Assembly (NCBI GenBank): GCA_030280995.1
Contig: JASXTE010000015.1
Coordinates: forward strand, 22,154,501-22,218,500
Reading direction: 5' to 3'
DNA from: Hemileia vastatrix
Taxonomy: Eukaryota > Basidiomycota > Pucciniomycetes > Pucciniales > Zaghouaniaceae
DNA length: 64,000 nt
Part shown: one piece after another, positions 7,431-47,320 of the stretch
Position numbering within the stretch: the first letter of the stretch is position 1
How the letters are laid out: every line of letters begins with the position of its first letter
Made by a program: the position numbers and the translations under genes
The notes under the pieces: generated by a model
Databases searched by the model: none
What the model was told of the DNA's origin: nothing
What the model saw: the letters and a program-made list of their open reading frames with translations, nothing else

Positions 7431-7639
7431 TTTTCAACTGATTGATTTTAACAAATCATTAATTTAATTCAATGACAACACAATCAATTCAAAATCCCCT
7501 ATCCAAAATTTGAGCAGCTCATTCAAAGGATGATTATTGTTTGGGGATTTAAGACAAAATACTCTTGAAGCAAGGAACCAAGAGATTCAGTATAGAATCA
7601 GGTCTGTTAGTCTTTGAAGGTAGAGTAGTCATACCTGGC

Positions 7640-22577: not shown

Positions 22578-22664
22578 AATAGGAGGTATCAAAGTTGAGG
22601 GATCCACAATGAGGGATCAGGAATTTTTTTCCCAGGATCAGACATTATTAATTTCTGAAGATTT

Positions 22665-22694
22665 TTATCCGCTAGCCCCAGGGCTAGTGGATAA
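22665..22694. repeat. subterminal palindrome of Harbinger 1
   Basis: TTATCCGCTAGCCCC next to AGGGCTAGTGGATAA: 15-bp arms with two mismatches, about 85 bp from the transposase-side end. It is shared with Harbinger 2 and 3 and may be a transposase or host-factor site. Confidence 0.85.
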
Positions 22695-22998
22695 GGAATC
22701 CACAATAATGCATTATTGCACCTCTTATACCCCAATTTCCATTCCTAATTCCTGATCCAAAACTCATCACATCCATGATGGATTTTTAAGAAAGTCACAT
22801 GAATTATAATTGCTGATGCCATCCTTAAGTCTTTCCTCACTCTATGCTTCTTAATTTTTGTGTCAAAAACTTAAAGTTTTTTTCTATCTACACACCCCAA
22901 CTGCACATTTGGCGGTGAATTCCGACTTCCCTCATCACATAAGCCTTCCACCAACAACTATATAACACCTCTCTACTAGGCAGTTACTTCACTCAACT

Positions 22999-24219
22999 AT
23001 GAATTCTATTGCTTTACTTTTAGTTATTTACTATAAAACAGACTCTGATTTAGAAGATGCTTTAGAAAATTTTCACTCTTCCCAAAAAGTGTTACATAAA
23101 CCCAAGGGGGCCAAATCTTCATCATGATCCCAGATATGATCTCCGCTCCATTCTCAAAATTCCTCAACTAAACTTCACTCAACTATTTTAAACTTCTGCC
23201 AATTCTTTCTTCAAGCTTGATCAACTCATCTCCAAAAATCATATCTTTCATAACAATTCTCAAAATAAACAGCCTGATCCTGCTATTCAAATTGCTGTTG
23301 CACTATGTCGCTTTGGCTCAAATGGAAATGGTGCTGCTGTAAAATGTTTGGAAAATCTCTTTACCATAGGATATGGTATATTGATATTATACACCAAGCG
23401 TTGTATGATTGCCATCCTTTCCCTCAAGTCTCAAACACTTGCTTGGCCAACTCCACAACAGCAACTTAAATGCTCTCAAGTAATGCAAGATTAAGGTGCC
23501 CCTGGCTGTGTAGGTTTTGTTGATGGCAAAAATATACCTTTGAGTCAAAAGCCTGCTCATGATGGAAACCATTATTTTGATCACAAAAAAAGGTTTATTA
23601 AAAATGTTCTATGTTTTCACATCTTTCATAAACTAACTTTTAATCTTCTTTGTAGATACTATATTGCTGTTCAACTTGTCTGTGACATCAACAAAAAGTT
23701 TATTGTTTTTCATAGTGGCTGCCCTGGCTCATGTCATGACTCTTTGTCTTACAAAGAATGTGGATTTCTCAAAGTCCTGACTCATACTTTGACGAATCTC
23801 AGTACCTCCTTGCAGACTCAGCATATGCAAGTGGAAAGTACATTATACCTACTTTCTGTGGCGCAACTTTAGAAAATGACCCCAAAACCACCTTTAATTA
23901 TCACCTCAAAAAATCAAGAGTGCGGATTGAACATGCTATTGGGATTTTAAAGGGAAGATTTTCTAGTCTCCAGGAGCTCAGAATCCACTTTCAAAAAAAA
24001 TTGTAGATAAAAACAGCAAATTATTGGATCATGACTTGTGTTATACTCCAAAATATCCTAACTAATATAAAGGATGAGTGGAATGATCTTTATGAAGAAG
24101 AGGATCCTGAACCAACACCGGCTCTCCCCTCTTTTGAATCACAAAACATTCATTCAACCGGCATACACTCTGTCATTATGCCCATCACCCTCCACCATTT
24201 TGACACACAAATCTTTTAA
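22999..24219 (+). pseudogene. Harbinger 1 DDE transposase, broken copy
   Basis: It begins MNSIALLLVIYYKTDSDLED and follows the Harbinger 2 transposase throughout. Stops and frame changes start around 23,105 and recur (for example 23,492 and 24,004). Recognisable catalytic neighbourhoods are the HDS stretch near 23,730, LADSAYASGKYIIPTF near 23,812 and RVRIEHAIGILKGRFSSL near 23,920. The intron position of Harbinger 2 is conserved (GT near 23,593, AG before 23,658). The frame resumes to a C-terminus ending near 24,219. The product would have cut and re-inserted element DNA. Confidence 0.85.
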
Positions 24220-25632
24220 TTTTTTGTTTTCATACTCTCCAAATGTCCACTTTGTATACTTTATTCATTTGACTTGGTATTTTTGTTTGTTGCATTTCAT
24301 TTTTATTTTGAAACTATGGGGAATATCTCTTTTTTTGGATGGCTCATTGGTTTTCTTTCACCAGCTCAACATGAAATCACATAATTTTTCACTGTTTCTT
24401 TTTTCATTCATCCCTCATATCCTTTTCATCTTCTCCTCCAAAATCCCTCTATCAATTTGGTTTCATTTATTTTTTCATCTCATCTCTCCAGGTAAGTCAT
24501 TTTATTCTTTTTTTATTTGTTTTTTTGATTGCTAATTATAAAATTTTTTGGTTTTTGTTCTGTTTTGTTTTTTTATCTAAATTTTTTTAAGTGGTTATTT
24601 TTGATTTCAATTGTAAAATTAACCTTTTTTTTCTCTCCCTCTTTACTTTATTTTTTAGCTCAATCACCCTACTCTTCATCCCTCCTTGGCACGGTCATTA
24701 CCCCCCCTTTCCCCTATTTTACTTTTTTTTGGCTCCATGTCATTAAAACACATACATATCACATACTCCATATTCAATTTCCCTACAATTCCAACATCAA
24801 TCTTTTTCACTCTATTTTTTCTACTTTTCAATCAAGGTAGGTTTCATATCCTTTTTTATGCCTATATGATATCTCATTCCTTTTATGAAAATTTCATACT
24901 TAAATATATGTATGACTCTTATCTGGATAACAGTGAACTTATTAAACTCTTTTTGTTATCATCTCAATTACCACTTTTCAAGTTTTTGTAAAATTTTGAA
25001 AATAAGACTTGGAATTAGGGTTATTTTTATTTGAATCTAATGTTATTTTTATTCAAGATTCTCCTGAAGGCTACCTTTCATTTCCCACAAACAGATTTGA
25101 ATTTGGTTCAGTGGTTGCTGAGATATTGACCATTAACATTAAGCCATTTTTTCCCAATTTAAATTTTTATTTCATTTTTTATGTAACAAATTAGGTTTAG
25201 GTTTATTTAAATTAGATGTCCTTTAACTGAAGATTCTACTAAAGCCAATCTCTCATTTCACACAAACAGGTTTGAATTAGGTTCAGTGTTCGCTAAGATT
25301 TTAACCTTTGAAGTTAAGCTATCTTTTCCAAATTTCACTTATCTTATTTCACGTTTTTTGTGCATAATTAGAGAAAAAGGATTCTTAAACTCTTATCTGA
25401 TTATTATCTAGGCTTTTATCTCCCTCTTTTTGAACTTTTCATCATCACTGTTCAAGTTTTTGTGAAAATTTGAAAAAGTAGAGTCAGAATTAGGCTTAGG
25501 TTTATTTGAATCAACTGCCCTTTTAGCTGAAGATACTTTAAGATTACATAAAGAAACTAAATTTTGTGAGTTTTATTTTTTTCCAATTTATTTTTTTGGT
25601 TTTTGACACAAATTTTTTTTAAAGAGAAAAAA
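24220..25632. other. spacer of Harbinger 1, T-rich, non-coding
   Basis: Long T-rich plus-strand reading frames here (about 24,074-24,991) are low-complexity Phe/Leu/Ser strings with no counterpart in Harbinger 2. A short C-run near 24,697 may be the collapsed remnant of the large C-rich inverted repeat seen in Harbinger 2. 25,010-25,190 and 25,195-25,330 contain two diverged copies of a block with TTTCCCACAAACAGATTTGAAT. Confidence 0.6.
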
Positions 25633-28142
25633 ATGTCTATTTCATCAGAATCACCTCTTACTTCTCTATCATCATACTCTTTATCATCTTTATCATCTTT
25701 TTCAAATTCAACTTCATTTCAATATTCATCAAATTGTTCAGATAAAAAAATGTCTATCTCTTCAGAATCACCTCTTACTTCTCTATTATCATCCTCATTG
25801 TCATCCTCTTTATCATCTTTATCATCTTTTTCAAATTAAACTTCATTTTAATCATCATCCAAAAGATCAAAAAAAATTATGATGTTTGAAGTCAGCAGAA
25901 TAAAAAAATATAAAAAAGAAAATTCACTTGGATTGCTTATTTGGCCATATATCAAATATTGATTACTGTAAATGTCAGTGTATCTAGTATATAAGTATGA
26001 TTTAATAGTATTTATTAATGGTCATACTACTTATTTATAAATTATTTAGTGATTAAACCTCAGGGGAAAATTATTAAAATAGTTATACTCAAATAAAACT
26101 CACAATACTTGAATTTAAATGTGTGCTAGTGGTGGAAAATAGATAAATAGAATATAGGTATAGCTTATATAATTATAATATCAATTTATAAAGATTTTAT
26201 AATATATTTTTAAATGATAATAGTTGCGTTTAAATTTTTAATTGAACTGTAGTAAGTAAGTGATGTCTAATAACTGTCAAAATCCTCCCTTACTTATACC
26301 AAAATCCACTGGAGTGCACAGACCTTCAATCCAGATGATGTCACTGTTATCCCCGGCAATTACAGCACTGTGAGGGCCCATCACCTCCCCATGGCTTCTA
26401 CTTCAAGAAGATTCAACACCCAGACCTCCAGTAAGGACCCTCAATCACAGTTAATGATAACACAGACCCATACCATAAATAGAAAATCCAGATAAAAGCG
26501 GATACTATAAAGAAACAGGTAAAATAACTAATCCAAAAGGAATAAAATGAAACCCAAAGCGTATAAAGGAAAAAAATTAAATTTCCAAGCCTTCAATAAT
26601 ATCCCCAAGCATCCATATTAACCCAGAAATAACCTCCCAACCCATAAATCCGTGAATATCCATCCAAGGAAACAGATTAAGTTGTCCAAACTGAGTACAT
26701 GCGCCTGAAATAGATGTATATGCTTCTGTAGGCGTTGTGAATCCACTTAATACGTCCATATGACCTAAAATAAGTAGAAAAACAAAGGCTATTGGCTATT
26801 AAGAGGCTAAAACCCACTTATAGACCTAAATATACATAATATACTGCATATTTCACTGAATATGAGATTTATGTATACATATAAGCTTATGTATGTCAAT
26901 AATTACTTAATATCACTTAAGATAAATATATTATGACTCCATTAACACCTTAATAAGTATTATTAGTCTATGGATAAGCTAATTAAACTACTATAAATCG
27001 TATAATAGTATAATAATTATATATATATGTATTATAATCATATATATAAGTATTTAACCTTATTTCTAAGTAATAAGCTTGATGTATTTAAGGTTATCTT
27101 AGTTTAAAAATAAGAATAACTCAGTCCTGGATATACCTAGGCTGAAAATAAAACTAGGGTGGATCAAAAAAATTCTTATCCAAATGAGTTACCAGAAGAT
27201 TTAAAATATTCAACCAAATCAGGGACAATGAAATTAAAGCAGTTATCAGTAATTCTTTTAAGCCTCAATTTATTTATGAAAATCATTCTTTTAATTGTTC
27301 AAAAGATGAAACCTTTAATCAACTATCCAATCTCATAATAACACTATATCAATTGGCTTTGGCTTGTTTACCATTAAGAAATACAAATTTGTTGGGTGGT
27401 ATTATGATTTGATTTGGTTGGAGACCAGGATTTGGTAAAAGCTCTTCTCTTGGTATGTCTGATAATATATGTTTCTTTCTTAAAGTCATGTCACTAATTT
27501 TATTTTCATAGGCATCTATTCTTTACTTAAAAATTTATCTAAAGCTGAAAAAGATGACAATTTTTTCTTATGGGACACCTTACCTTCTTTCAATACTTTT
27601 ATTGCTCTTTGCCTCAAAAAACTCTGTAATAAAGCTTTTGAAAAGAATCATCAACTTGCTACCAAAGCTGGAATACTAAATTTTTGTGACTCAGAATTGG
27701 TAGAAATTAGCGACCAATATCTTTTATTTTCAAACTTTATTATTACTCATTCAGGATTCCAAAATAAGATTCATATCAATAGGAATAATGCCAATTATCT
27801 TAGATTTGGAATTCTCTCATACATCAATCTGATAGCTGGACAACCTATTCCTTCCCCAGCTAAAATAAAAGGTCATGGGTTATACTTTCTGGATCACAAC
27901 TGTATAATTTATTTTGGATTGGGAACTGGAATCATTGAAAATATTTGAAACTCTTCTAAGGATAATCACCAAACAGCAAAAGCTCCCCCTGGTTTGGAAT
28001 CTTTTCATGACTTTACTAATTTTGGCTTCTCTTTCCAAATTAATCAAAAACTAATCCAATAAATAAATAAGGTAAATAAAGAAGGTAAATTTAAAAGATA
28101 TAAAAAACTTTATGTAAATCAAAAAAGTATGGGGATGAGTAG
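25633..28142 (+). pseudogene. Harbinger 1 Tet/JBP-like dioxygenase, broken by a solo LTR
   Basis: The N-terminus is a Ser-rich low-complexity tract (MSISSESPLTSL...) that is duplicated in tandem (from 25,633 and again from 25,750). A solo LTR interrupts at 25,973-27,147. The gene resumes with SYPNELPEDLKYST near 27,170, uses a GT-AG intron at about 27,451-27,510, and then reads almost continuously through the oxygenase core: IHINRNNANYLRFGIL near 27,769, PSPAKIKGHGLYF near 27,855, a GIIE segment near 27,930 and DNHQTAKAPPGL near 27,965. Stops at about 27,409, 27,946 and 28,060, plus frameshifts, make it a pseudogene. It is highly similar to the copy at 42,518-43,766, including HIN where HxD is expected. 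Confidence 0.75.
25973..27147 (-). mobile_element. gypsy-family solo LTR inside Harbinger 1
   Basis: TGTCAGTGTATCTAG...CTAGGCTGAAA, 1175 bp, same family as the gypsy 1 LTRs. The flanks GTAAA (25,968-25,972) and ATAAA (27,148-27,152) differ by one base. This is the innermost layer of the seven-deep nest. Confidence 0.85.
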
Positions 28143-28429
28143 AGTCATCAAATATTTTTTATTTTTTCATAAATTTTTTATAAATACCTCTTACATTTCT
28201 AATTCTTAAATTAAAGTAATGGGCCAACAACCCTATGTTGTATAAATGGGAATCATGACAAAATTTATTTATTTCATGAGGTTCCTCAGCCTACACTTGT
28301 GGAAAGTTTCAAACATTTGTTTCTAGATGTATCCAAATTTTGGCTAGAGGAGTTGTCATTACTTTAAAACTAGGGAAATTGATATATATTAGTTGTTTAT
28401 ATATTAATTTATGTAATTATTTTAAAATT

Positions 28430-28765
28430 TGGTGATTTTCACCCCTTACTTCAATAAAATGCAGGGGAGGGTATCGCTAAATTTTCAAATCTGACATGTG
28501 AAATTTATGACTTAGAAAAATTTTGGTGATACCCATCCCTCGCTTCAATAAAATTCAGGGGAGAGTATTACCAAATTTTTATATGAGACTTGTGAAAAAA
28601 AATTGACTTGAAATTTTGGTGATACCCATCCCTTACTTCAATAAAATGCAGGGGGGGGGGGTATTGCCAAAATTTCATATAAGACTTACAAAATTTTTTA
28701 CTTGAAAGAATTTTGGTGATTCCCACCCCTTAGTTCAATCAAATGCAGGGGTGGGATAAAAAAAA
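28430..28765. repeat. about 92-bp tandem repeats between oxygenase and SANT genes (Harbinger 1)
   Basis: Four imperfect units, each with TTTTGGTGAT.CCCA.CCCTTACTTCAATAAAATGCAGGGG in part (split here by variable positions), then an AT-rich half with a (T)GACTTG or GACATGTG string. Within a unit CCCCTTACTTC and the GCAGGGG side form a C4/G4 hairpin. The inverted counterpart is at 41,810-42,225. Confidence 0.85.
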
Positions 28766-28967
28766 ATTCAATTTTTACTTAAAATTTCAACTAAAAAAGA
28801 ATTTTTAACATTAAAAATTCTTGAAAAGTTTATTTAAAAAAGAATTTATAACATTAAAATATGAAAATTCAACTAATGATGGATATAGTAAAGAAATAAA
28901 GGAAATTAATTAAAATTTTGTGTACAATTAATTATGAACAGTTAAAGTGTGATAGAAATAAAAAAAA

Positions 28968-30357
28968 CTAGTCATCAAACAATTTCTTTAAATGTTCAAT
29001 TTCCTCAACAGATTTATTAGCTTTAACACATTCAATCAAGAAATATTTCTTTTTGTAACTTTTCTCATGATCAAGCTTATATTTCATCTGTTCCATGAGG
29101 TTTTGATGCTTGAGTGTTTTGTCCTCTTTCTTTGATTTTTCAATACTTAGATATAACTCAAATTTCTTCTCCTCCAAGTCTTGTGACCTATCATCTTTCT
29201 GTAAAGAGTGTTTGTACTTCCTCTCCTCCAAGACTTGTGCCCTATCATCCTTCTGTAAAGAGAGTTGGAACTTCTTCTCTTCCAAATTATGTACCCTGTC
29301 ACTCCCCCTTAAAGAGATCTCATATTTTTTCATTTCAAACTTTGGAGTCTCTTAAGAGACTTCCACTTTTTCTAGAGTTATAATAAATATAAACAAACAG
29401 TAGAAGAAAATCAGAGTAAAGAATTAAGAGGTTTGGTATCACTTACCAGCATCACGTTTCTCCAAAAAATCTTTGATAGAAGAAAAAAGGGTTTGAGATG
29501 AAGTATCACTTTTTCTTCTTCTTTGAGAGTTGAAATTTAGACTACTTGAAGCCCTTTGCTTTTTTTTCAAGGTCACATTTTCCTCCTCATCATTGTTTCT
29601 GGCTTCTGACTCAGTTGATTGTGGCTCCTGCGTTTCTTCTTCAGCCATTTTAAAAATAATTAAATGTAAATAAAAAAGAATTGGTAAGATAAAAGAAAAA
29701 AACATACTTGAGTTAGATCAGGTTGGTTTATATTGCCATAAGGATCTATTGAAAAGATATATTAATTTGTGGAAGTTAGATGAGGGGAGGCTTGAGTAGA
29801 AGAAGAAGAAATAAGATTTCTTTTGACATCATGCTCAGAGATAGCATCTTCACCATCCAACATTTTTGCAGGATTAACATCAGCTCACTCTCAAAAATAG
29901 CATCCATCTCTTTAAAGTAAGGACATAAAGAATCAAGTTTATTGTCTATGGATTTGATGCCCTTAATGATATTGAAGTCAGTAATACCAAAACCAGTAGA
30001 ATATGAAAGAGTCTTTGCCTTCTTGTATTTGGCTCAATAATTCTTGAAGTGTTCAGAAATCTGTTTAGGTAAAAGATTTATCCTTCCCTTGGTCTTATTC
30101 CATAATTTGTTGGTCATTAAAAGATAACCATTAACTTTTGATTCTGGGGGCCATCCTACTTTAGTTGCATTTTTAGTACCAAAACAAGAATAATAGTTAG
30201 ATTTAGATTTCTGCAAGTTAATAAGAATGAGATGATCATCTTTTTATAATTTAACAGTCAATTATTTCTCAGCTGAGTGGGGTAAAGAGGGAGTAGTGCA
30301 ATTTGAAGAACAACTGGGGGAAGGCTGCCTTTGAGAAGATCTATGATGACAGGGCAT
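28968..30357 (-). pseudogene. Harbinger 1 SANT/Myb-like protein, broken copy
   Basis: It starts MPCHHRSSQRQ at 30,357 (minus) and parallels the Harbinger 2 gene. The trihelix-like segment is near 30,040-30,210 (NATKVGWPPESKVNGYLLM), with an in-frame stop near 30,034. Frames are lost near 29,880, then an acidic exon follows (STESEARNNDEEENVTLKKK, about 29,580-29,650) and the C-terminal repeats of an 18-residue unit (SLQKDDRAQVLEERKYKH type) at 29,130-29,330, ending at 28,968. In PIF/Harbinger systems this partner binds DNA and helps the transposase enter the nucleus; here it is non-functional as read. Confidence 0.8.
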
Positions 30358-30649
30358 GTTAAGATAAATGAATATGAAAAGGGGAAAAAACAAGCAGATG
30401 AGATAGAGAGGTGTTCTGAATAGAGAGAACAGGAGTGTGCAGAAAGGTAGAAGTCATATCCAGAGAGTAGTTAAAGATGTGGTTATGTAAAATTGAGTAA
30501 AAAATGTAGGATAAGAGGTCAACTTTGACACATAAAATTTCTAATAACCCAATTATTAGCAAAAATAATTAGGGAAGATGATTGGGGTATAAGGATTTTT
30601 ATCTGCAATTAATTAAATTGTGGATCATTCAACTTTGATACCCCCTAAT

Positions 30650-39700: not shown

Positions 39701-40269
39701 TATTGGGACTATCAATTTACATCCGACACAGCTTCCAAAGATATTAGTTTTTTGATTGACACTGGAAATATTATTGAAGGTACAAGACAAAGAGTCCCAA
39801 GAGAACTAAACAGTCTTGTTGAAATCAAAAAACTATTTATCTTCTGTTGATTCAATCACTTCCCATTCTCAACATGATAAAATTCCCAATGTATATCTTT
39901 CCAATCCCCTTACTTATTAGGGGGTATCCATGTTGACCGATCCGCAATTAAATTAATTTCGGAAAATAATCTGCATACCCCAATTATCTTCCGCAATTAT
40001 TTTTGCTAATAATTGGGTTATTAGACACTTTACGTGTCAATGTTCACCTCTTATCCGACATTTATTTACTCAATTTTCCATAACCACATCTTGGACAACT
40101 TTCTGGATATCCCAGCCTTCTACCTTGCTGCGCACTTCCATTCTCATCCCATCCTGTTCATTCTATCCGCTCAGAATTTCTCCCCATTTCATCTATTTGA
40201 TTCTTCTCCTTTTCATCTCGCTATCTCATCTGCTTGTTTCTGCTCCTTTTCATCTTCATTTATAATAAC

Positions 40270-41667
40270 ATGCCTTGTCATCCTAGATCTTCTCAAAGGC
40301 AGCTATCACCCAGTTGTTCTTCAATTCCCACTACTTCCTCTTTTCCCCGCTCAGCCAAGAAATCAAAGACTGTTCAATTAAAAAAAGATGATCATCTCAT
40401 TCTTATCAACTGGCTGAAAACCAAATCTAACTATGATTCTTGTTTTGGTACTGAGTATGCCACTAAAGTAGGACGGCCCCCCACATCAAAAGTTAATGGC
40501 TATCTTCTAATGGCAAATGAATTACGCAATAAGACCAAGGGAAGGATTGATCTTTTGCCTAAACAGATGTCTGAACGCTTCAAGCATTATCAAGCAAAAA
40601 ACAAGAAGGCAAAGGCTCTTTCATCTTCCACTGGTTTTGGGGTTACTGACATTGATATAACTAAGGGTATAAAATCCATAGACAATAAACTTGATTCTTT
40701 ATGTCCTTACTTTAAAGAGATGGATGCAATTTTTGGAGAGCGAGCCGATGTTAATGCTGTAAACATGTTAGATGGAGAAGATCCTATCTCCGAACATGAT
40801 GTTGAAGCAAATCTTTTCCCATCCTCTTCCGCCACTCAAGCCTCCCCTCTTCTAAATTCTACAAATCTAGATAGCTTTGCTATTGGTCCTATTGGTGATT
40901 TAACCCAACCCAATCTAACTCAGGTCTGTTTCTTTTATCTTATCAATTCTATTTTTTTATTTACTTATATTTTTCTTATTTCTTAAAAGGCTGATGAACA
41001 AACCCAGGATCCTCAATCAACTGAGTCTGAAGCTAGTGACAATGATGAGGAGGAAAATGCTACGTTGAACAAAAAGAGAAGGGCTTCAACTAGTCTAAAT
41101 TTCCTCTCCCAAAGAAGACGAAAAAGTCATACTTCATCACAAACACCTTTTTCTTCGATGGAACAGTTTTTAGAGAAACGTGATGCTGGTAAGTGATATC
41201 ATACCTCTTATTACTTTACTCTGCTTTTCTTCTACTTTATGTTAATTTTTATTCTCACTCTAGAACAAGTGGAAATTGCTAAAGAGACACTGAGCTTTGA
41301 AAAGGAGAAATACGAGCTCTCTTTAAGGAGGGATGACAGAGTACAAGATTTGGAAGAGAGGAAGTATGAGCTCTCCTTACGGAAGGATGATCGGATCCAA
41401 GATTTGGAGGAGAAGAAGTTTGAGCTCTCTTTACAGAAGGATGGTAGGGCCCAAGATTTGGAGGAGAAGAAGTTTGAGTTAACTCTTAGTATTGAAAAAT
41501 CCAAAAATAAGGAAAAAACACTCGAGCATCAAAACTTAATGGAACAGATGAAGTATAAGCATGATCTCCAAGAAAGTTCTAAAAAGAAAGATTTCTTGAT
41601 CGAATGCATTAAAGCAAACAAATCTGTTGAAGAAATAGAACGTTTAATGAAATTTTTTGTTGACTAG
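40270..41667 (+). CDS. SANT/Myb-like accessory protein of Harbinger 2, 3 exons, about 418 aa
   Basis: Exons 40270-40923, 40990-41188 and 41264-41667 (GT-AG; lengths 654+199+404, frame-consistent) give about 418 aa. Residues about 35-120 form a basic helical domain (DDHLILINWLKTKSNYDSCF, TKVGRPPTSKVNGYLLMANE, LLPKQMSERFKHYQAKNKKA) that fits the SANT/trihelix type typical of the second PIF/Harbinger protein. An acidic stretch (ESEASDNDEEE) and a basic KKRR/RRRK patch follow, a possible nuclear signal. The last exon holds three and a half tandem copies of an 18-residue unit (KYELSLRKDDRIQDLEEK), a likely coiled coil. A weaker upstream ATG at 40,234 is in frame; 40,270 is chosen because the Harbinger 1 copy shares MPCHxRSSQRQ. 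The role (DNA binding, transposase import) is family inference. Confidence 0.8.
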
Positions 41668-41809
41668 TTTCTTTTATTTCTTTCACACTTCATGTGTTCA
41701 TATTTATTTGTACATAAATTTTACAATTATTTTCTGTATTTCTTGAAATATCGTATTTTAATGTTAAATATTCTTTTTTTAAATAAAATTTTCAAGTCTC
41801 CTTTGAAAA

Positions 41810-42225
41810 TTTGACAATCCCCCACCCCTGGATTTTTTTGAAGTAAGGGGTGGGTATCACAAAAATTCTTTCATGTCATGAATCTTGAAAGTTTTATATG
41901 AAAATTTGGCTTTACTACCCCCTGCATTTTACCGGTATCCTAAAAATTCTTACATGTCAAGAATTTCACAAGTCTTATAAAAAATTTTGGCACAACCCCC
42001 CATGGATTTTATTGAAGTAAGGGACGGGTATCACAAAAATATTTACAAGTAAAAAAAATTCTATATCTGTTTAAAAAAATTGGCAATACTCTCCCCTGCA
42101 TTTTATTGAAGCAAGGGGTGGGTATCACCAAAATTTTTCTAAGTCATCAATTTCACATGTCAGATTTGAAAATTTGGCAATACCCCCCCCCCTGCATTTT
42201 ATTGAAGTAAGGGGTGGAAGTCATC
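41810..42225. repeat. about 92-bp GC-spiked tandem repeats (Harbinger 2)
   Basis: At least four units containing CCCC(C)TGCATTTTATTGAAG followed by TAAGGGGTGGGTATCAC, then an AT-rich half with CATGTCA and GAATTTCACAAGTC. Each unit pairs CCCC with GGGG around the GCATTTTATTGAAG stretch. The block fills the gap between the 3' ends of the convergent SANT and oxygenase genes, and the same family lies at the same place in Harbinger 1. Confidence 0.87.
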
Positions 42226-42517
42226 TAAATTTAATATAATTACATAAATTATTAAATAAATATCTAATATATATCAATTTCCCTAGTTTAATGTAATGAC
42301 AATCCCTCAAGCCAAAATGCAGACCAAGTCGAGAAACATAAGTTTGGGACTTTCTACAGGTATAGGAAAGAGGAACCCCATGAAACAAATAAATGTTATC
42401 ATGATTAACTGTTATACAACACAAGGTCGATGGCTCATCACATTCTTTGAGAAAATTGATATATAAAAAATATTTATTAAAAATTTATGAAAAAATATAA
42501 AATTTTCGATGACAACT

Positions 42518-43766
42518 CTAATCCCCATACTTTTTGGATCTAGATAAAGTTTTTTTAAATCGAATAACTTTACCTTCTTTCTTTACCTTATTGATTCTTT
42601 GTATCAACTTATTACTGATTTGAAATGAGCAACCGAAATGAGGGAAATCTTGACAGGATTTCAAACCAGGAGGAGCTTTGGTCGTTTGATGATTATCCTT
42701 AGAAGAATTCCAAATAGTTTCGATGATACCATTTCCCAAACCAAAATCAATGATGCACCGGTGGTCTGGAAAATATAAACCATGTCCTTTGATTTTAGCT
42801 GGAGATGGTATTGGGTGGCCAGTTATCGGATTGATATATGAGAATATTCCAAAAGTAAGAAAATTGGCATCATTCCTATTGATATGAATCCTATTGTGGA
42901 ATCCAGCATGAGTGATAATAACATTAGAAAATAAAAGATATTCGTGGCTGATATCTTCCCATTCAGAGTCACACCAATTCGGTATTCCAACTTTGGTTGC
43001 AAGGTCATGATTTTTTTCAAATGCCTTATTACAGAGCTTTTTGAGTTGAAGAGCAAGAAAAGAATTAAAGTAGGGTAGAGTGTCCCATAAGCGAAAATCT
43101 TCATCTTTTTGTGCTTTAGTGATATTATTGAGCAATGAATATATACCTATATAATTGAAATAAGTGAAATGATATTAAGAATGGAACAAAAATTATTAGA
43201 CATACCAAGAGAATATCCTTTGACAAAACCAGGTCTCCAACCAAAACCAATCATGATACCACCCAACAAATTCTTATTCCTTATAGGTAATCGAACCAAA
43301 GCCATTTGATAAAGAGTTATGATAAGATCGGATAGTTGATTAAAAGCTTCATCTTTTACACCATCGAATGAATGAACTTCCAAAATGAATTGAGGCTTAA
43401 AAGCATTGCTGATAACTGCAACAACTTGATCATCTCCAAATTCTGTTAGATATTTGATATCTTCTGGTAATTTTTTCGGATATTGATTTTTTTTATCTAC
43501 TTTAGTTTTATAAAAAAAAATGTTTGGGATATGACGAAAATAACTTTCGCAGAGAGACTTTTTTTTTAAATATCTTTTCTTCTGATGAGACTGATTATCT
43601 TTAATTTTTTTGATGATTTAGAAGATGATTGTATGGAAGTTGATTTCAAAGAAGATGATAGAGTTGATTTCAAAGAAGATGATAGAGATGATAAAGATGA
43701 AGATGATAAAGAAGATAAAGATGAAGATAAGAGAGAAGTAAGGGGTGAATCAGAAGAAGAAGACAT
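42518..43766 (-). CDS. Tet/JBP-like 2OG-Fe(II) dioxygenase encoded by Harbinger 2 (one apparent frameshift)
   Basis: Minus strand. 43,766-43,206 gives a Ser-rich tract (SSLSSSLKSTLSSSLKS) then, after a one-base frame slip near 43,570 next to an A9 run, PEDIKYLTEFGDDQVVAVIS and NLLGGIMIGFGWRPGF. A GT-AG intron (43,205-43,147) follows; the exon at 43,146-42,518 holds the core, in all about 395 aa. Core order matches the fungal Tet-like oxygenase pattern: metal-site segment RIHINRNDANFLTFGIFSYI (42,886 leftwards), KGHGLYFPDHRCIIDFGLGN, GIIETIWN, the distal His in KDNHQTTKAP, and FGCSFQIS near the end. In that family HxD and a later His bind iron; here HxD reads HIN. Family members oxidise 5-methylpyrimidines, but substrate and activity are unknown here. 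The intron and core are conserved in Harbinger 1, which argues it belongs to the transposon. Confidence 0.68.
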
Positions 43767-43789
43767 TTTTTTGATCTGAAAAAAAAATT

Positions 43790-44384
43790 AATTGTCAATA
43801 AAATTTTAACTCAAATTTTTTTTAAAAAAAATTCCTACCTAATAATAAAAAAAGCTGTTTTTTTATTTTAAAAATAAAATTGAAAAAAAAACCAAAAAAT
43901 CAGTAAAAAATTTTCCAAAAAAAAAAATTATAAAAAAAAAACCTGAGGTTTTATTTTAAAAAACACAATCAAAGCAAAATCCTATTAAAAAAAATTAATA
44001 ATTAAATTCATTCAAAAAAGAAAATTTCAGTAAGAATTAAAACACAAAAAAAAAAAAAAAAAAAAAATTAAAAGTGAACCTGAAGATTGGTTATTAAAAA
44101 CCTTCTCACAAGATCATGAAAAAAAAAAAATCAGTAAAATCAAAATAAAAAATTAAAAAAATTATTTAATTAAAATCAAAATCACAAAAATTAATTATAG
44201 AAAAAATAAAAATAAAATTATAAACCTTTTTTGTTTTGTAAATAAGAGGGACAGTCCTTATCAGCAAAAAAATTTTTTTTTTCTATATTACTGCAAAAAA
44301 AATAAAAAAAATAATCAAAATTACAAACAAAAATTTGTTAGTATCTTTATTTGAAAGTTAGTAACCCATCTTTATCTCCCATTA
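43790..44384. other. A-rich spacer of Harbinger 2
   Basis: Long A tracts (for example 23 consecutive A near 44,050) with no coding content, between the oxygenase 5' end and the inverted repeat. A TGTAATATAG-like promoter for the oxygenase could lie here, but I see no defined motif. Confidence 0.6.
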
Positions 44385-45165
44385 AAGTCCCCTTTTCCCC
44401 CTCAAATGCTCTCCTTGCCTGCCTCAAAATCCCCCTGAAATACCCCCCTTTCCCCCCTCTTTAGGTCCCTCATCACCCTCCTTCCCCCCTCATTAGCTGC
44501 CTCAAACCCCCCCCCCCATTCCCCCCTCTTTAGCTCCCTCAAACCCCCCCCCCATTCCCCTCACCTTAGGCGCCTCAAACCCCCCCCATTCCCCTCTCCT
44601 TAGGCGCCTCAAACCCCCCCCATTCCCCTCTCCTTAGGCACCTCAAACCCCCCCCATTCCCCTCTCCTTAGGTACCTCAAACCCCCCCCCCTTCCAATCT
44701 CCTTACCCCCTCCCAAACCCTTTCCCCAGCACCCACCCCCCCCCCCCCCCACCTCCATGTTAACAAACGATCTGTAACGATCGTTTGTTAATAAACAGGG
44801 GGGGGGGGTAGAGGAGGATATAATGATTAGGTAGGGGGGTAAAGTGAGTAGAAGGGGGGGAAGGGGGGGTGTTTGAGGCGCCTAAAGAGAGGGAAAGGGG
44901 GGGTTTGATGTGGGTAAAGAGAGGTGAAGGGGGGGTTTGAGGCGCCAAAAGAGAGGTGAAGGGGGGGGGTTTGAGGGACATAAAGAGAGGGGAAGGGGGA
45001 GTATTGAAGCACCTAAAAAGAGGGGAAAGGGGGTGATGAGGGACCTAAAGAGGGGGGAAAGGGGGGATTTGAGGCAGCTAAAAAGGGGGTAAAAAGGGGG
45101 TCAGAGACAGGTAAAGAGAGGGAAAAAGGGGGGCCTTGAGGATCATAAAGAGAGGTGAAGGAGAG
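44385..45165. repeat. large C-rich/G-rich inverted repeat built of about 33-bp units
   Basis: The left arm (about 44,385-44,758) is made of units like CCTTAGGCGCCTCAAACCCC plus a C run and ATTCCCCTCT. The right arm (about 44,800-45,165) has the inverted units (GAGGCGCCTAAAGAGAGG, GGGGGGG, TTTGAGG). The centre is a perfect 12-bp-arm palindrome, TAACAAACGATC-TGTAAC-GATCGTTTGTTA (44,761-44,790). The proline/glycine-rich ORFs it creates on both strands are artefacts. It lies between the oxygenase and transposase genes and is absent or collapsed in Harbinger 1. Confidence 0.85.
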
Positions 45166-45229
45166 AAAAAAAAACAAAAAAATAAAAAGATAAAAAAGAG
45201 AAAAAAGCAAAACAAAAATTAGTTTACCC

Positions 45230-45297
45230 TAGAACAAAAATAATAGAAGCACTTACAAAAAAAACAAAAAAACCAAAAAAAAAGCAAAAAAAAAGCA

Positions 45298-45328
<31 letters not shown>

Positions 45329-45370
45329 ATCATGATTAGCAAATAAAAAACCATGAAAAAAGAAAAAAAA
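45230..45370. repeat. (A)nGC microsatellite
   Basis: AAAAAAAAAGC-type units are repeated at about 45,275-45,330 in an A-rich spacer just outside the inverted repeat. Length variation is likely. Confidence 0.7.
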
Positions 45371-45677
45371 TGACCTACCTGGTGAGTTGAGTTGAGAAAA
45401 TAAATGCAACCAAAATATTTGAGGGATGTTTGAGGAGAGGATGAAAAGGATATGAGTGATGAATGAAAAAAAAAATCACTGACAAAATATGCGATATAAG
45501 AAAATATGCGATTTCATGTTGAGGAAGTGAAAGAAAACCAATGAGCCATCCAAAAAAAAGATATTCACCGTAAATTCAAAAAAAAAAATGAATATGCAAC
45601 AAACCAAAATACAAAACCAAGTGATTAAAGTACACAAAGAGGACATTTGGAAAGTATGAAAACATAAAAATAAAAAA

Positions 45678-46988
45678 TTAAAAGGGTGAAGAGAAATGTT
45701 GAAGAGTAATTGGCATTATAATGGGGCGTATGCCGGTTGATTGAATGATTTGTGAATCAAGGGAGGGGAGTGCCAGTGGTGGTTCAGGATCCTCTTCTTC
45801 ATAAAGATCATTCCACTCATCCTTTAAATCAGCTAGAATATTGTGGAGTATTACGCAAGTCAAGATCCAATGATTTGCAGTTTTGATCTCCAATTTTTTT
45901 TGAAATTGGATTCTGAGCTCCCAAAGACTAGAAAATCGTCCCTTTAAAATACCTATAGCATGTTCAATTCGTACTCTTGATTGTGCAAGGTGATAATTAA
46001 ATTTAGTTTTGGGGTCATTTTCTGAAGTTGCACCACGGAAAGCAGGTATAATGTACTTTCCACTTGCATATTCTGAGTCTGCAAGGAGGTACTGAGATTC
46101 GTCAAAGTATGATTCAGGGGATTGAGAAATCCTCATTCTTTGGAAGACGGAAGAGTCATGACATGATCCAGGGCAGCCACTGTGAAAAGCAATAAATTTT
46201 TTATTGACATCATATACAAGTTGAACGGCAATAGAGTATCTAGAAAGAAGATTAAAAGTTAGATTGTGAAAGATGAGAACTTGGAGAAGATTTTGAAGAA
46301 ACCTTTTTTTGCGATCAAAATAATGGTTTCCATCATGAGCAGGCTTTTGACTCAAAGGGATGGTTGTGCCATCAACAAAACCTATACAGCCAGGGAAACC
46401 TTCAGCTTGCATTACTTGAGAGGATTCAAGTTGCTGTTCTGGAGTTGGCCAAGCAAGAGTTTGAGACTTGAGGGAAAGGATAGCAATCATACAGCGCTTG
46501 GTGTATAATATCACGGTACCATATCCTATGTTAAAGAGATTATCCAAACGTCTTACGGCAGCACCATTTCCATTTGAGCCAAAGCGACATAGAGCAACAG
46601 CAAGTTGGATGGCAGGATTACGCTGTTTGTTATGAGAATTGTTATGGAAGATAGGATGATCGGAGATGAGTTGATAAAGTTTGAAGAAAGAATTGGGAGA
46701 AGTTCTAAAAAGTTGGGTGAAGTTTAAATGAGGAATGTTGAGAATGGAGGCCAGATCATATCGGGGATCATGATAAAGATTTGGCCCCCTGGTGATGATG
46801 TAACGCTTTTTGGAAAGAAAACACATATAAGCTAAAGCATCTTCCAAATCAGAGTCAGATTTATAGTAAAGAACTAAAAGAAAAGTGATAGCATTCATTG
46901 TTGAGTGAAGTAGCTTCCTAGTAGAGAGGTGTTTCATTGTTGCTGGTGGAAGGGTTAAGTGATGAGGGAAGTGGGAATTCACCGCCAA
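45678..46988 (-). CDS. PIF/Harbinger DDE transposase (DDE_Tnp_4 type), Harbinger 2, intact
   Basis: Minus strand; an uninterrupted 436-codon frame, but 46,302-46,240 (63 nt, GTTTCT...TTTCTAG) is very probably an intron, giving 415 aa; without it HYFDRKKR joins the expected YSIAVQL strand. Catalytic segments: GFVDGTTIPLS with Asp206, GCPGSCHDSSVF (Asp257 after splicing), LADSEYASGKY with Asp283 and RVRIEHAIGILKGRF with Glu321, in the order of the RNase H-like PIF/Harbinger nuclease. An N-terminal helical segment (RRLDNLFNIGYGTVILYTKR) follows a CRFGSNGNGAA motif, as in the family. The C-terminal EEEDPEPP tail is acidic. It would excise and re-insert elements bearing the AGGGGGTATC ends together with the SANT partner. 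All catalytic residues are present, so activity is possible. Confidence 0.92.
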   Translation of the reverse strand: MAVNSHFPHHLTLPPATMKHLSTRKLLHSTMNAITFLLVLYYKSDSDLEDALAYMCFLSKKRYIITRGPNLYHDPRYDLASILNIPHLNFTQLFRTSPNSFFKLYQLISDHPIFHNNSHNKQRNPAIQLAVALCRFGSNGNGAAVRRLDNLFNIGYGTVILYTKRCMIAILSLKSQTLAWPTPEQQLESSQVMQAEGFPGCIGFVDGTTIPLSQKPAHDGNHYFDRKKRFLQNLLQVLIFHNLTFNLLSRYSIAVQLVYDVNKKFIAFHSGCPGSCHDSSVFQRMRISQSPESYFDESQYLLADSEYASGKYIIPAFRGATSENDPKTKFNYHLAQSRVRIEHAIGILKGRFSSLWELRIQFQKKLEIKTANHWILTCVILHNILADLKDEWNDLYEEEDPEPPLALPSLDSQIIQSTGIRPIIMPITLQHFSSPF

Positions 46989-47201
46989 ATGTGCAGTTGG
47001 GGTGTGTAGATAGAAAAAAAACTTAAGTGTTCGCCACCAAAATTAAGTAGCATAGAGTGAGGAAATACTTAAGGATGGCATCAGCAATTATAAGTCATGT
47101 GACTTTCTTAAAAATCCATCATGGATGAGATGAGTTTGGGATCAGGAATTAGGAATGGAAATTGGGGTATAAGAGGCAGGATAATGCATTATCGTGGATT
47201 T

Positions 47202-47233
47202 CTTATCCACTAGCCCTGGGGCTAGTGGATAAG
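47202..47233. repeat. perfect subterminal palindrome of Harbinger 2
   Basis: CTTATCCACTAGCCC-TG-GGGCTAGTGGATAAG: 15-bp arms without mismatch, about 85 bp from the transposase-side end. No equivalent is visible near the other end (39,919-40,050), so the two ends are asymmetric. Confidence 0.92.
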
Positions 47234-47320
47234 AATCTTCCGCAATTAATAATGTCTGATCCCGGGAAAAAAAATTCCTGATCCCTAATTGCGGATCCCT
47301 GAACATTGATACCCCCTATT

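What the first reader, a model, noticed from the sequence alone, without database searches (positions are those of the whole stretch)
39919..47317. A Harbinger transposon that carries a Tet/JBP-like dioxygenase
Harbinger 2 encodes the usual DDE transposase and SANT-like partner plus a third gene whose core follows the fungal Tet-like 2OG-Fe(II) oxygenase order (metal-site His region, GxxF strand, IDF..xxGIIE, distal HQT, FGxSxQIS). Tet/JBP genes are known to travel with KDZ transposons in basidiomycetes; an association with PIF/Harbinger is, as far as I know, not standard. The enzyme could modify methylated element DNA to escape silencing or regulate transposition.
Basis: partly seen in the sequence, partly recalled or inferred. 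Interest (0 to 1): 0.88.

Follow-up and report, generated by a model that had tools for sequence, protein, structure and literature searches.

The report
Coffee-rust transposon carrying TET-like dioxygenase
A cut-and-paste transposon, in what is very probably the coffee leaf rust genome, carries a gene for a DNA-demethylase-like enzyme; such transposons were described in other rusts in 2025, but this one leaves a different target-site scar, its enzyme gene seems to have been swapped between element families, and in this copy the enzyme's iron site has been lost by a mutation typical of methylated DNA.

Summary
The element is real: 7,399 bp, ~32-bp inverted repeats, ATT on both sides, a DDE transposase (PF13359, E 6e-25), a partner protein and a TET-like oxygenase (PF20515, E 4.5e-36). 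The genome matches the published Hemileia vastatrix Race I assembly. Three things differ here. (1) Empty sites of five insertions show a 3-bp AWT duplication, not PHISTA's TA; with AG-starting repeats this fits the Pangu group better. (2) TET has a different history from its neighbours: L062 has transposase and partner dS 0.21 and 0.36 from the window element, but TET dS 2.27. (3) This copy reads H-x-N where four outside homologues read H-x-D at the iron site; the codon spans a TCGA hypermutation hotspot, and 661 of 2,137 exact-match copies genome-wide read Asn. So the family encodes a constrained, probably active TET (dN/dS ~0.1 between families) and this copy is most likely a dead member. 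The partner's SANT label is not established; no activity was tested. A new variant of a known kind.

The parts
39919..47317 (.). Whole TET-carrying PHIS (PIF/Harbinger superfamily) element, family A, 7,399 bp
   Evidence: Termini; genes; multicopy
39916..39918 (.). Left target-site duplication ATT
47318..47320 (.). Right target-site duplication ATT
39919..39950 (+). Left terminal inverted repeat (28 of 32 match the right end)
47286..47317 (-). Right terminal inverted repeat
40270..41667 (+). Partner gene, three exons (40270-40923, 40990-41188, 41264-41667; splice sites read by eye), with charged repeats in its last exon; Myb/SANT identity not established
   Evidence: PF13837 E 0.0053, below cut-off, only in the sister-family protein; helical low-confidence model
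42518..43146 (-). TET-like oxygenase, exon with the metal site and C-terminal part of the domain
   Evidence: PF20515 E 4.5e-36
43147..43205 (-). Intron of the TET-like gene, 59 bp, GT..AG (read by eye)
   Evidence: sequence; exon join agrees with homologue P0003
43206..43617 (-). TET-like oxygenase, upstream exon (N-terminal part of the domain)
43618..43766 (-). Probable Ser-rich N-terminus of the TET-like protein, in a different frame in this copy
   Evidence: One search compared with the open 393-aa frames of sister copies L055 and L057
42878..42880 (-). Asn codon AAT where homologues have the iron-binding Asp (HxD)
42884..42886 (-). First metal-site His of H-x-D/N
42689..42691 (-). Distal metal-site His (NHQTT)
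45681..46937 (-). DDE transposase, presumed intron 46240-46302 (read by eye); D 46371-46373, D 46155-46157, E 45963-45965
   Evidence: PF13359 E 6.3e-25
41996..42217 (.). 94-bp tandem repeat 3' of the TET gene; also present, up to ~90% identical in pieces, in the sister family
44443..45161 (.). C-rich (34-bp unit) and G-rich (33-bp unit) arrays facing each other, between TET and transposase genes
22581..30646 (-). Second, more decayed copy of the same element (TSD AAT), its TET gene interrupted by an insertion; also H-I-N

Best explanation
This is one copy of a large PHIS (PIF/Harbinger-superfamily) DNA transposon family in a rust fungus, very probably Hemileia vastatrix. Shown: it encodes a DDE transposase, a partner protein and a PF20515 TET-like dioxygenase between ~32-bp inverted repeats, and the family inserts with a 3-bp AWT duplication. 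Shown by sequence comparison: the TET protein is held under strong purifying selection between families, and its gene has a history different from those of the transposase and partner genes, best explained by replacement between element families. Inferred: an intact copy's enzyme oxidises 5-methylcytosine on element DNA, which slows silencing and C-to-T decay and so helps the element move, with the enzyme acting as a replaceable accessory module. This copy is a decayed member: its iron-ligand Asp became Asn by a CpG transition at a TCGA site, so it is expected to be catalytically dead, although its transposase frame is open (through the presumed intron).
For: PF20515 E 4.5e-36 and DDE_Tnp_4 E 6.3e-25. 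TSD: 22 of 24 terminus pairs carry the same AWT on both sides (binomial P 1.8e-5 if only TA were duplicated; 22 of 25 if the gene-less L012 is counted), and 5 of 12 insertions tested have paralogues aligned without a gap at the junction with a single AWT (the window's two copies are not among the five). Constraint: A-B TET exon dN 0.11-0.15, dS 1.26-1.45, ratio 0.08-0.12 over 18 pairs. Exchange: window copy against L062, dS 0.21 transposase, 0.36 partner, 2.27 TET; control pair window-L009 0.13, 0.13, 0.15; TET exon identity 58% without the intron; tree conflict. Decay: C-to-T 130 of 432 (30%) at TCG against about 1-3% at non-CpG sites in 36 family-A copies; the Asp codon lies in ATCGAT, G-to-A in 10 of 36; genome-wide exact 17-mers 1,476 Asp and 661 Asn.
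Against: No activity is shown for this enzyme, and Kojima says none is validated for fungal transposon TETs. The structure model of a named homologue failed (mean pLDDT 34) and a 7-sequence profile found no solved structure at E <= 10. Strong CpG decay in TET-carrying copies argues that protection is weak. L015 has transposase and partner without TET, so TET is not kept in cis by every copy. The exchange rests mainly on one divergent locus (L062, its stretch cut before the left end) plus the A-B contrast; the A+B TET node has only 69% support, and dS values above 1 are imprecise.
Confidence: 0.8

Rival explanations
1. The element is simply a PHISTA family as defined by Kojima 2025, inherited vertically with its TET gene, and nothing about it is new except the host.
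For: Closest named transposases are Puccinia coronata (55%) and P. striiformis (54%); three genes, TET present, TA next to GGGGG on both flanks; Kojima reports PHISTA in six rusts with a third protein lacking Myb/SANT.
Against: Empty sites show a 3-bp AWT duplication, not TA, so the defining feature is not met unless PHISTA's TA was mis-called; TET and transposase histories conflict.
Confidence: 0.3
2. The HxN site is not decay but a distinct enzyme state (a non-catalytic, regulatory TET-like protein kept by selection in part of the family).
For: 661 of 2,137 exact-match copies carry Asn, and so does L055, a sister-family copy with an open 393-aa TET frame.
Against: The Asn change has about the frequency of TCG transitions in general (10 of 36 here, 30% over all TCG sites) and the silent change on the other strand of the same CpG is about as common (8 of 36); all four outside homologues have Asp.
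Confidence: 0.05
3. The similarity of family A and B TET genes reflects stronger constraint on TET, not gene exchange.
For: A-B TET dN/dS is very low (0.08-0.12) and A-B TET dS is itself 0.84-1.63 in the pairs tested.
Against: Against Austropuccinia, TET is less conserved (38-41%) than transposase (49-50%), yet between A and B it is more conserved (78% against 62%); non-coding repeats 3' of TET are up to ~90% alike; constraint cannot explain L062, where TET is saturated and its neighbours are not.
Confidence: 0.15
4. The oxygenase gene is an unrelated host gene or chance ORF trapped in a transposon.
For: The genome holds very many PF20515 stretches (150 of 150 scored candidates over the cut-off), so some may lie in transposons by chance.
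Against: 6 of 8 termini-selected elements have it between the other two genes and it is under purifying selection across families.
Confidence: 0.02

Closest known systems
TET+ PHISTA elements (Kojima 2025, PMC12730594)
   Same: PHIS/Harbinger transposase, TET gene, a third protein without a clear Myb/SANT domain, rust host, transfer of TET between elements
   Different: TSD here is 3-bp AWT by empty sites, PHISTA is defined by TA; host is very probably Hemileia (Zaghouaniaceae), not among the six PHISTA host species named there; exchange here is between families of the same superfamily
Pangu / Harbinger2 group (Han et al. 2015, PMC4482050)
   Same: ANT target duplication, inverted repeats starting AG or GG, DDE transposase plus an ORF without known motifs
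   Different: Pangu autonomous elements average ~3.5 kb with two ORFs and no TET is mentioned; transposase phylogeny against Pangu references not testable here
Dileera (KDZ) elements with TET in Puccinia and Melampsora (Iyer et al., as cited in PMC12730594)
   Same: TET-like gene carried by a rust DNA transposon
   Different: Different transposase lineage (DDE_Tnp_4 here)
CcTET of Coprinopsis cinerea (as described in PMC12730594)
   Same: Fungal transposon-related TET with measured 5mC oxidation
   Different: AG type, whereas rust TETs are PU type in Kojima's scheme; no sequence match of our profile to any solved structure at E <= 10

Membership tests
PF20515 Tet-like 2OG-Fe(II) oxygenase | Profile match over the curated cut-off | tested here: met
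   125.3 bits against 27, profile positions 10-211 of 211
PF20515 Tet-like 2OG-Fe(II) oxygenase | Complete metal triad H-x-D...H in this copy | tested here: not met
   H-I-N...H in both window copies; the family majority is HxD, so the family meets it and this copy does not
PF20515 Tet-like 2OG-Fe(II) oxygenase | Double-stranded beta-helix fold | tested here: inconclusive
   Model of homologue P0003 failed, pLDDT 34
Tet_JBP PF12851 | Profile match | tested here: inconclusive
   Not listed at E <= 1, where HMMER filters drop most weak matches
PHIS / PIF-Harbinger superfamily | DDE_Tnp_4 transposase with D, D, E | tested here: met
   PF13359 E 6.3e-25; residues located by motif
PHISTA (Kojima 2025) | TA dinucleotide target duplication | tested here: not met
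   3-bp AWT in 22 of 24 pairs and at 5 insertions with empty sites
PHISTA (Kojima 2025) | Transposase groups with PHISTA references | not testable with these tools
   Repbase and the paper's supplement not available; nearest named proteins are Puccinia
PHISTA (Kojima 2025) | Third protein without Myb/SANT | tested here: inconclusive
   No Pfam hit over cut-off; PF13837 E 0.0053 in the sister family only
Pangu / Harbinger2 | ANT target duplication and AG/GG-starting inverted repeats | tested here: met
   AAT or ATT, AGGGGGTATC or AGGGGGTGTC
Pangu / Harbinger2 | Transposase phylogeny | not testable with these tools
   No labelled Pangu references in reach
Canonical PIF/Harbinger or Nuwa | TWA, CWG or TNA target duplication | tested here: not met
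   Duplication is AWT
Canonical PIF/Harbinger or Nuwa | Myb/SANT partner protein | tested here: inconclusive

The most novel reading that the evidence does not exclude
In Hemileia, TET is a free module of PHIS transposons: a segment of up to ~3 kb with the TET gene is swapped between element families while transposase and partner stay put, and the host's TCG-directed decay repeatedly disarms the enzyme at one spot, because its iron-ligand codon spans a TCGA site. The ANT duplication would move these elements, and perhaps all TET+ 'PHISTA', into or next to the Pangu group.
Probability: 0.45. Interest if true: 0.6.

Novelty: new variant of a known kind. Interest (0 to 1): 0.45.

Why it matters
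It extends TET-carrying Harbinger elements to another rust family, corrects or splits their target-site definition, and gives a natural experiment: over two thousand recognisable TET copies, about a third disarmed at the iron site, next to TET-less relatives in the same genome. That makes it directly testable, from existing long reads, whether transposon-borne TETs protect their own DNA from methylation and hypermutation.

Tried and rejected

Rejected: TA as the duplication; chance ORF; Asn as a conserved alternative metal site. Considered but not claimed: that TET protects the elements. CpG observed/expected: this copy 0.36, L059 0.38, L013 0.36, L060 0.31, L009 0.19, second window copy 0.15, family B L057 0.40, L055 0.32, L056 0.24, rest of the window 0.17; age is not controlled.

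Rows dropped: from the 44 TET exon matches of 400 bp or more, 2 duplicates were removed and 6 divergent or family-B copies counted apart. From the terminus pairs, L012 was left out of the 24 (AAT on the left, TAT or ATT on the right, depending on the partner end, so it does not agree); for L013 the end at 7502, not 8095, was taken as the partner because partner-gene pieces of the host copy flank 242 and 7502. L002 and L009 overlap.

Not obtained: a genome-wide count of paired termini of the short non-autonomous copies; the server was busy each time. TET trees with Puccinia TETs were not possible: the one TET protein search returned 4 relatives, two of Austropuccinia and two unnamed.
Full report
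What is there. The stretch 39919-47317 is bounded by AGGGGGTATC in inverted orientation; the two ends match at 28 of the first 32 bases. It holds, from left, a three-exon partner gene on the + strand, a TET-like oxygenase gene with a 59-bp intron on the - strand, facing C-rich and G-rich tandem arrays, and a DDE transposase gene with a presumed 63-bp intron on the - strand (splice sites read by eye). Pfam gives PF20515 (Tet-like 2OG-Fe(II) oxygenase) E 4.5e-36, profile positions 10-211 of 211, and PF13359 (DDE_Tnp_4) E 6.3e-25; PF12851 was not listed at E <= 1. The element seems to sit inside a Copia-type retrotransposon: a reading frame to its right matches RVT_2, E 1e-8, while the frame tested to its left matched nothing. 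A more decayed copy of the same design, with an insertion in its TET gene and a stop in its partner gene, lies at 22581-30646.

Which genome. The host genome has 747,610,610 bases in 791 contigs, with contigs of 35,997,290 and 71,415,227 bases. The Hemileia vastatrix Race I assembly paper (PMC10652848, part 1 of 2 of the text read) reports 747,980,110 bp, 794 scaffolds, N50 35,997,362 and a largest scaffold of 71,415,227. The match is close enough to name the coffee leaf rust fungus with confidence, although the handle itself is unnamed. NCBI places it in Zaghouaniaceae.

Copy number. Termini: 9,552 forward and 9,425 reverse exact AGGGGGTATC against 483 and 476 for the reversed-pattern control. 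A search with the window's TET protein gave 220 matches after scoring 117 of 18,625 first-look candidates; the PF20515 search scored 150 of 10,849 and every row listed passes the cut-off, with none in the 14 control genomes; both counts are lower bounds. Of 8 stretches on contig C2 that I chose only by facing termini 5-8 kb apart, 6 match all three genes (transposase partial in L010, frames broken in several), L015 matches transposase and partner but not TET, L012 matches none. Terminus pairs 195-200 bp apart (L017-L021) show that short non-autonomous copies exist too.

A sister family. Five further loci (L055-L058, L061), picked because they match the TET query at about 79% or lie high in the PF20515 list, form a second family, B. 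Termini AGGGGGTGTC were found at both ends of L055, L056 and L057, at one end of L061, and not in L058; L055-L058 match all three genes, L061 lacks the transposase in the stretch fetched. L055 and L057 have an open TET frame of 393 aa. Between the window copy and L057 the transposase is 62%, the partner 51% and the TET domain 78% identical.

Target site. Next to GGGGG...CCCCC the flanks look like TA, the duplication that Kojima gives for his PHISTA elements. But the base beyond agrees as well: in 22 of 24 terminus pairs both flanks read AAT or both read ATT; the exceptions are L015 and L023 (chance of 22 or more of 24 under independence 1.8e-5). L012, without genes, was left out and would be a further mismatch (22 of 25). 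Of 12 insertions tested against the DNA held, 5 (L009, L010, L013, L056, L059) have paralogous empty sites that align without a gap at the junction and hold one copy of AWT; the other 7, the two window copies among them, had no such paralogue in hand. L013 is an insertion into another copy's partner gene; 22 rows, 21 distinct places, show its empty site, five of them family B at 66-68% identity. L009's site is A+T-rich and the weakest of the five. The duplication is therefore 3 bp, AWT, and the repeat starts with A. Han et al. 2015 (PMC4482050; passages and two sections read) give ANT duplications and AG- or GG-starting repeats for the Pangu group (Harbinger2 in Repbase, according to Kojima), TWA for PIF/Harbinger, and CWG or TNA for Nuwa. 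On these features the element is Pangu-like; the phylogenetic test was out of reach.

The enzyme and its metal site. All four outside homologues found, including two of Austropuccinia psidii, read H-x-D at the first half of the iron site; both window copies read H-I-N. In 36 distinct family-A copies of the domain exon (44 matches, two duplicates dropped, 2 divergent and 4 family-B copies counted apart) the codon is Asp in 26 and Asn in 10; in family B 2 and 2. C-to-T change is 130 of 432 at TCG, 25 of 144 at CCG, 8 of 36 at GCG, 2 of 36 at ACG, and about 1-3% in other contexts. The Asp codon lies in ATCGAT, TCG on both strands: G-to-A (Asp to Asn) 10 of 36, C-to-T (silent) 8 of 36. Genome-wide, the exact 17-mer with Asp occurs 738 + 738 times and that with Asn 356 + 305 times, with none in the controls: 661 of 2,137 (31%) have lost the ligand. 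In the 100 places listed for each, 36 Asp copies have the silent T and 1 Asn copy does (counted by eye); once one strand of the CpG has changed the other rarely follows, as expected for decay that needs a CpG. The Asn is thus best read as methylation-linked decay. TCG hypermutation in repeats of Puccinia and Microbotryum is reported in work that Kojima cites. The window copy's Ser-rich N-terminal frame also lies in a different frame from the following domain exon. It is most likely a dead TET in an otherwise recognisable element.

Is the family's TET kept by selection? Between six family-A and three family-B copies without stops in the exon (two of the six with Asn), dN is 0.11-0.15, dS 1.26-1.45, ratio 0.08-0.12 (18 pairs). 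That is strong constraint across a long separation, against the idea of a passenger gene. The copies were picked as good matches, which favours intact ones, and dS of this size is imprecise.

The TET gene has a history of its own. L062 has a transposase 86% (298 residues; the stretch was cut before the left end) and a partner 82% identical to the window copy, inside family A in both trees (93% and 100% support for its grouping with the second window copy and L016), but a TET only 60% identical (58% over the metal-site exon) and outside the A+B TETs (the A+B node has only 69% support). In the TET tree the second window copy and L016 also fall with family B (99%). Synonymous divergence, window copy against L062: transposase 0.21, partner 0.36, TET 2.27; against the second window copy 0.28, 0.36, 0.83; against L016 0.34, 0.44, 0.68; a concordant control, against L009: 0.13, 0.13, 0.15. 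Against family B (L057) the transposase and partner are saturated while TET is at dS 1.15 (1.63 for L059, whose aligned stretch includes poorly matching parts), and the A-B similarity block (79% over ~1.6-1.7 kb) runs past the gene into non-coding tandem repeats that are up to ~90% alike in pieces. I conclude that TET genes have been replaced between families at least once; direction and mechanism are open. Kojima reports such transfers between superfamilies and found one case over 70% DNA identity.

The partner. Its last exon holds charged 54-bp tandem repeats. Pfam finds no Myb/SANT domain in the window protein at E <= 10 and PF13837 at E 0.0053, under its cut-off, in the family B protein. 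A single-sequence model is helical with low confidence.

What is known and what is new. Kojima 2025 (PMC12730594; abstract, passages, methods, sections 3.1.4 and 3.4, part 1 of 2 of the discussion and figure legends read; supplement not read) already describes Harbinger elements with TET in six rusts and proposes escape from silencing. Hemileia is not among those six, and the full-text search Hemileia + Harbinger did not list that paper. My searches 'PHISTA' + transposon, transposon + TET dioxygenase + rust fungi + Harbinger, three of four terms, and Hemileia + Harbinger listed no other paper whose title or abstract start describes this association; the library lacks most subscription journals and I did not open the other listed papers for this point. 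To my knowledge from these searches, new here are the host, the AWT duplication shown by empty sites, the within-superfamily exchange of TET, and the quantified loss of the iron ligand at a CpG.

Mechanism, with what is shown and what is inferred. Shown by sequence: insertion with 3-bp duplications; the TET gene's constraint, separate history and decay. Inferred from family knowledge: oxidation of 5mC by intact copies, in cis or in trans, keeping elements transcribed and sparing some C-to-T loss. Against strong protection: family-A copies have lost much CpG, and L015 lacks TET. The likeliest picture is an arms race with partial protection.

Noticed in passing
window 44443-45161; L055 3331-3765; L057 4452-5000: C-rich and G-rich tandem arrays (33-34-bp units in the window copy) facing each other between TET and transposase genes in both families, with an A+T-richer palindrome between them in the window copy and L057; possibly a protein-binding or replication-blocking region.
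   Followed up: partly
L017-L021, L016 9212-9405, L022 230-429: Short (~195-200 bp) copies with the same termini and 3-bp duplications: a non-autonomous family that may make up many of the ~19,000 termini.
   Followed up: partly
L013 242-7502: An element inserted into the partner gene of another copy of its own family, with 21 distinct empty-site copies in the DNA held.
   Followed up: yes
L015: An element matching transposase and partner genes but no TET gene, with non-matching flanks (AAT/ATT); a possible TET-less control.
   Followed up: partly
L062 4430-4999: The divergent TET keeps H-L-D with the Asp codon outside a CpG, so it lacks the TCGA weak spot of families A and B.
   Followed up: partly
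window ~25980-27050 within 22581-30646: A ~1.1-kb repeat, with further copies near 19, 35.5 and 51 kb of the window, interrupts the TET gene of the second element.
   Followed up: no
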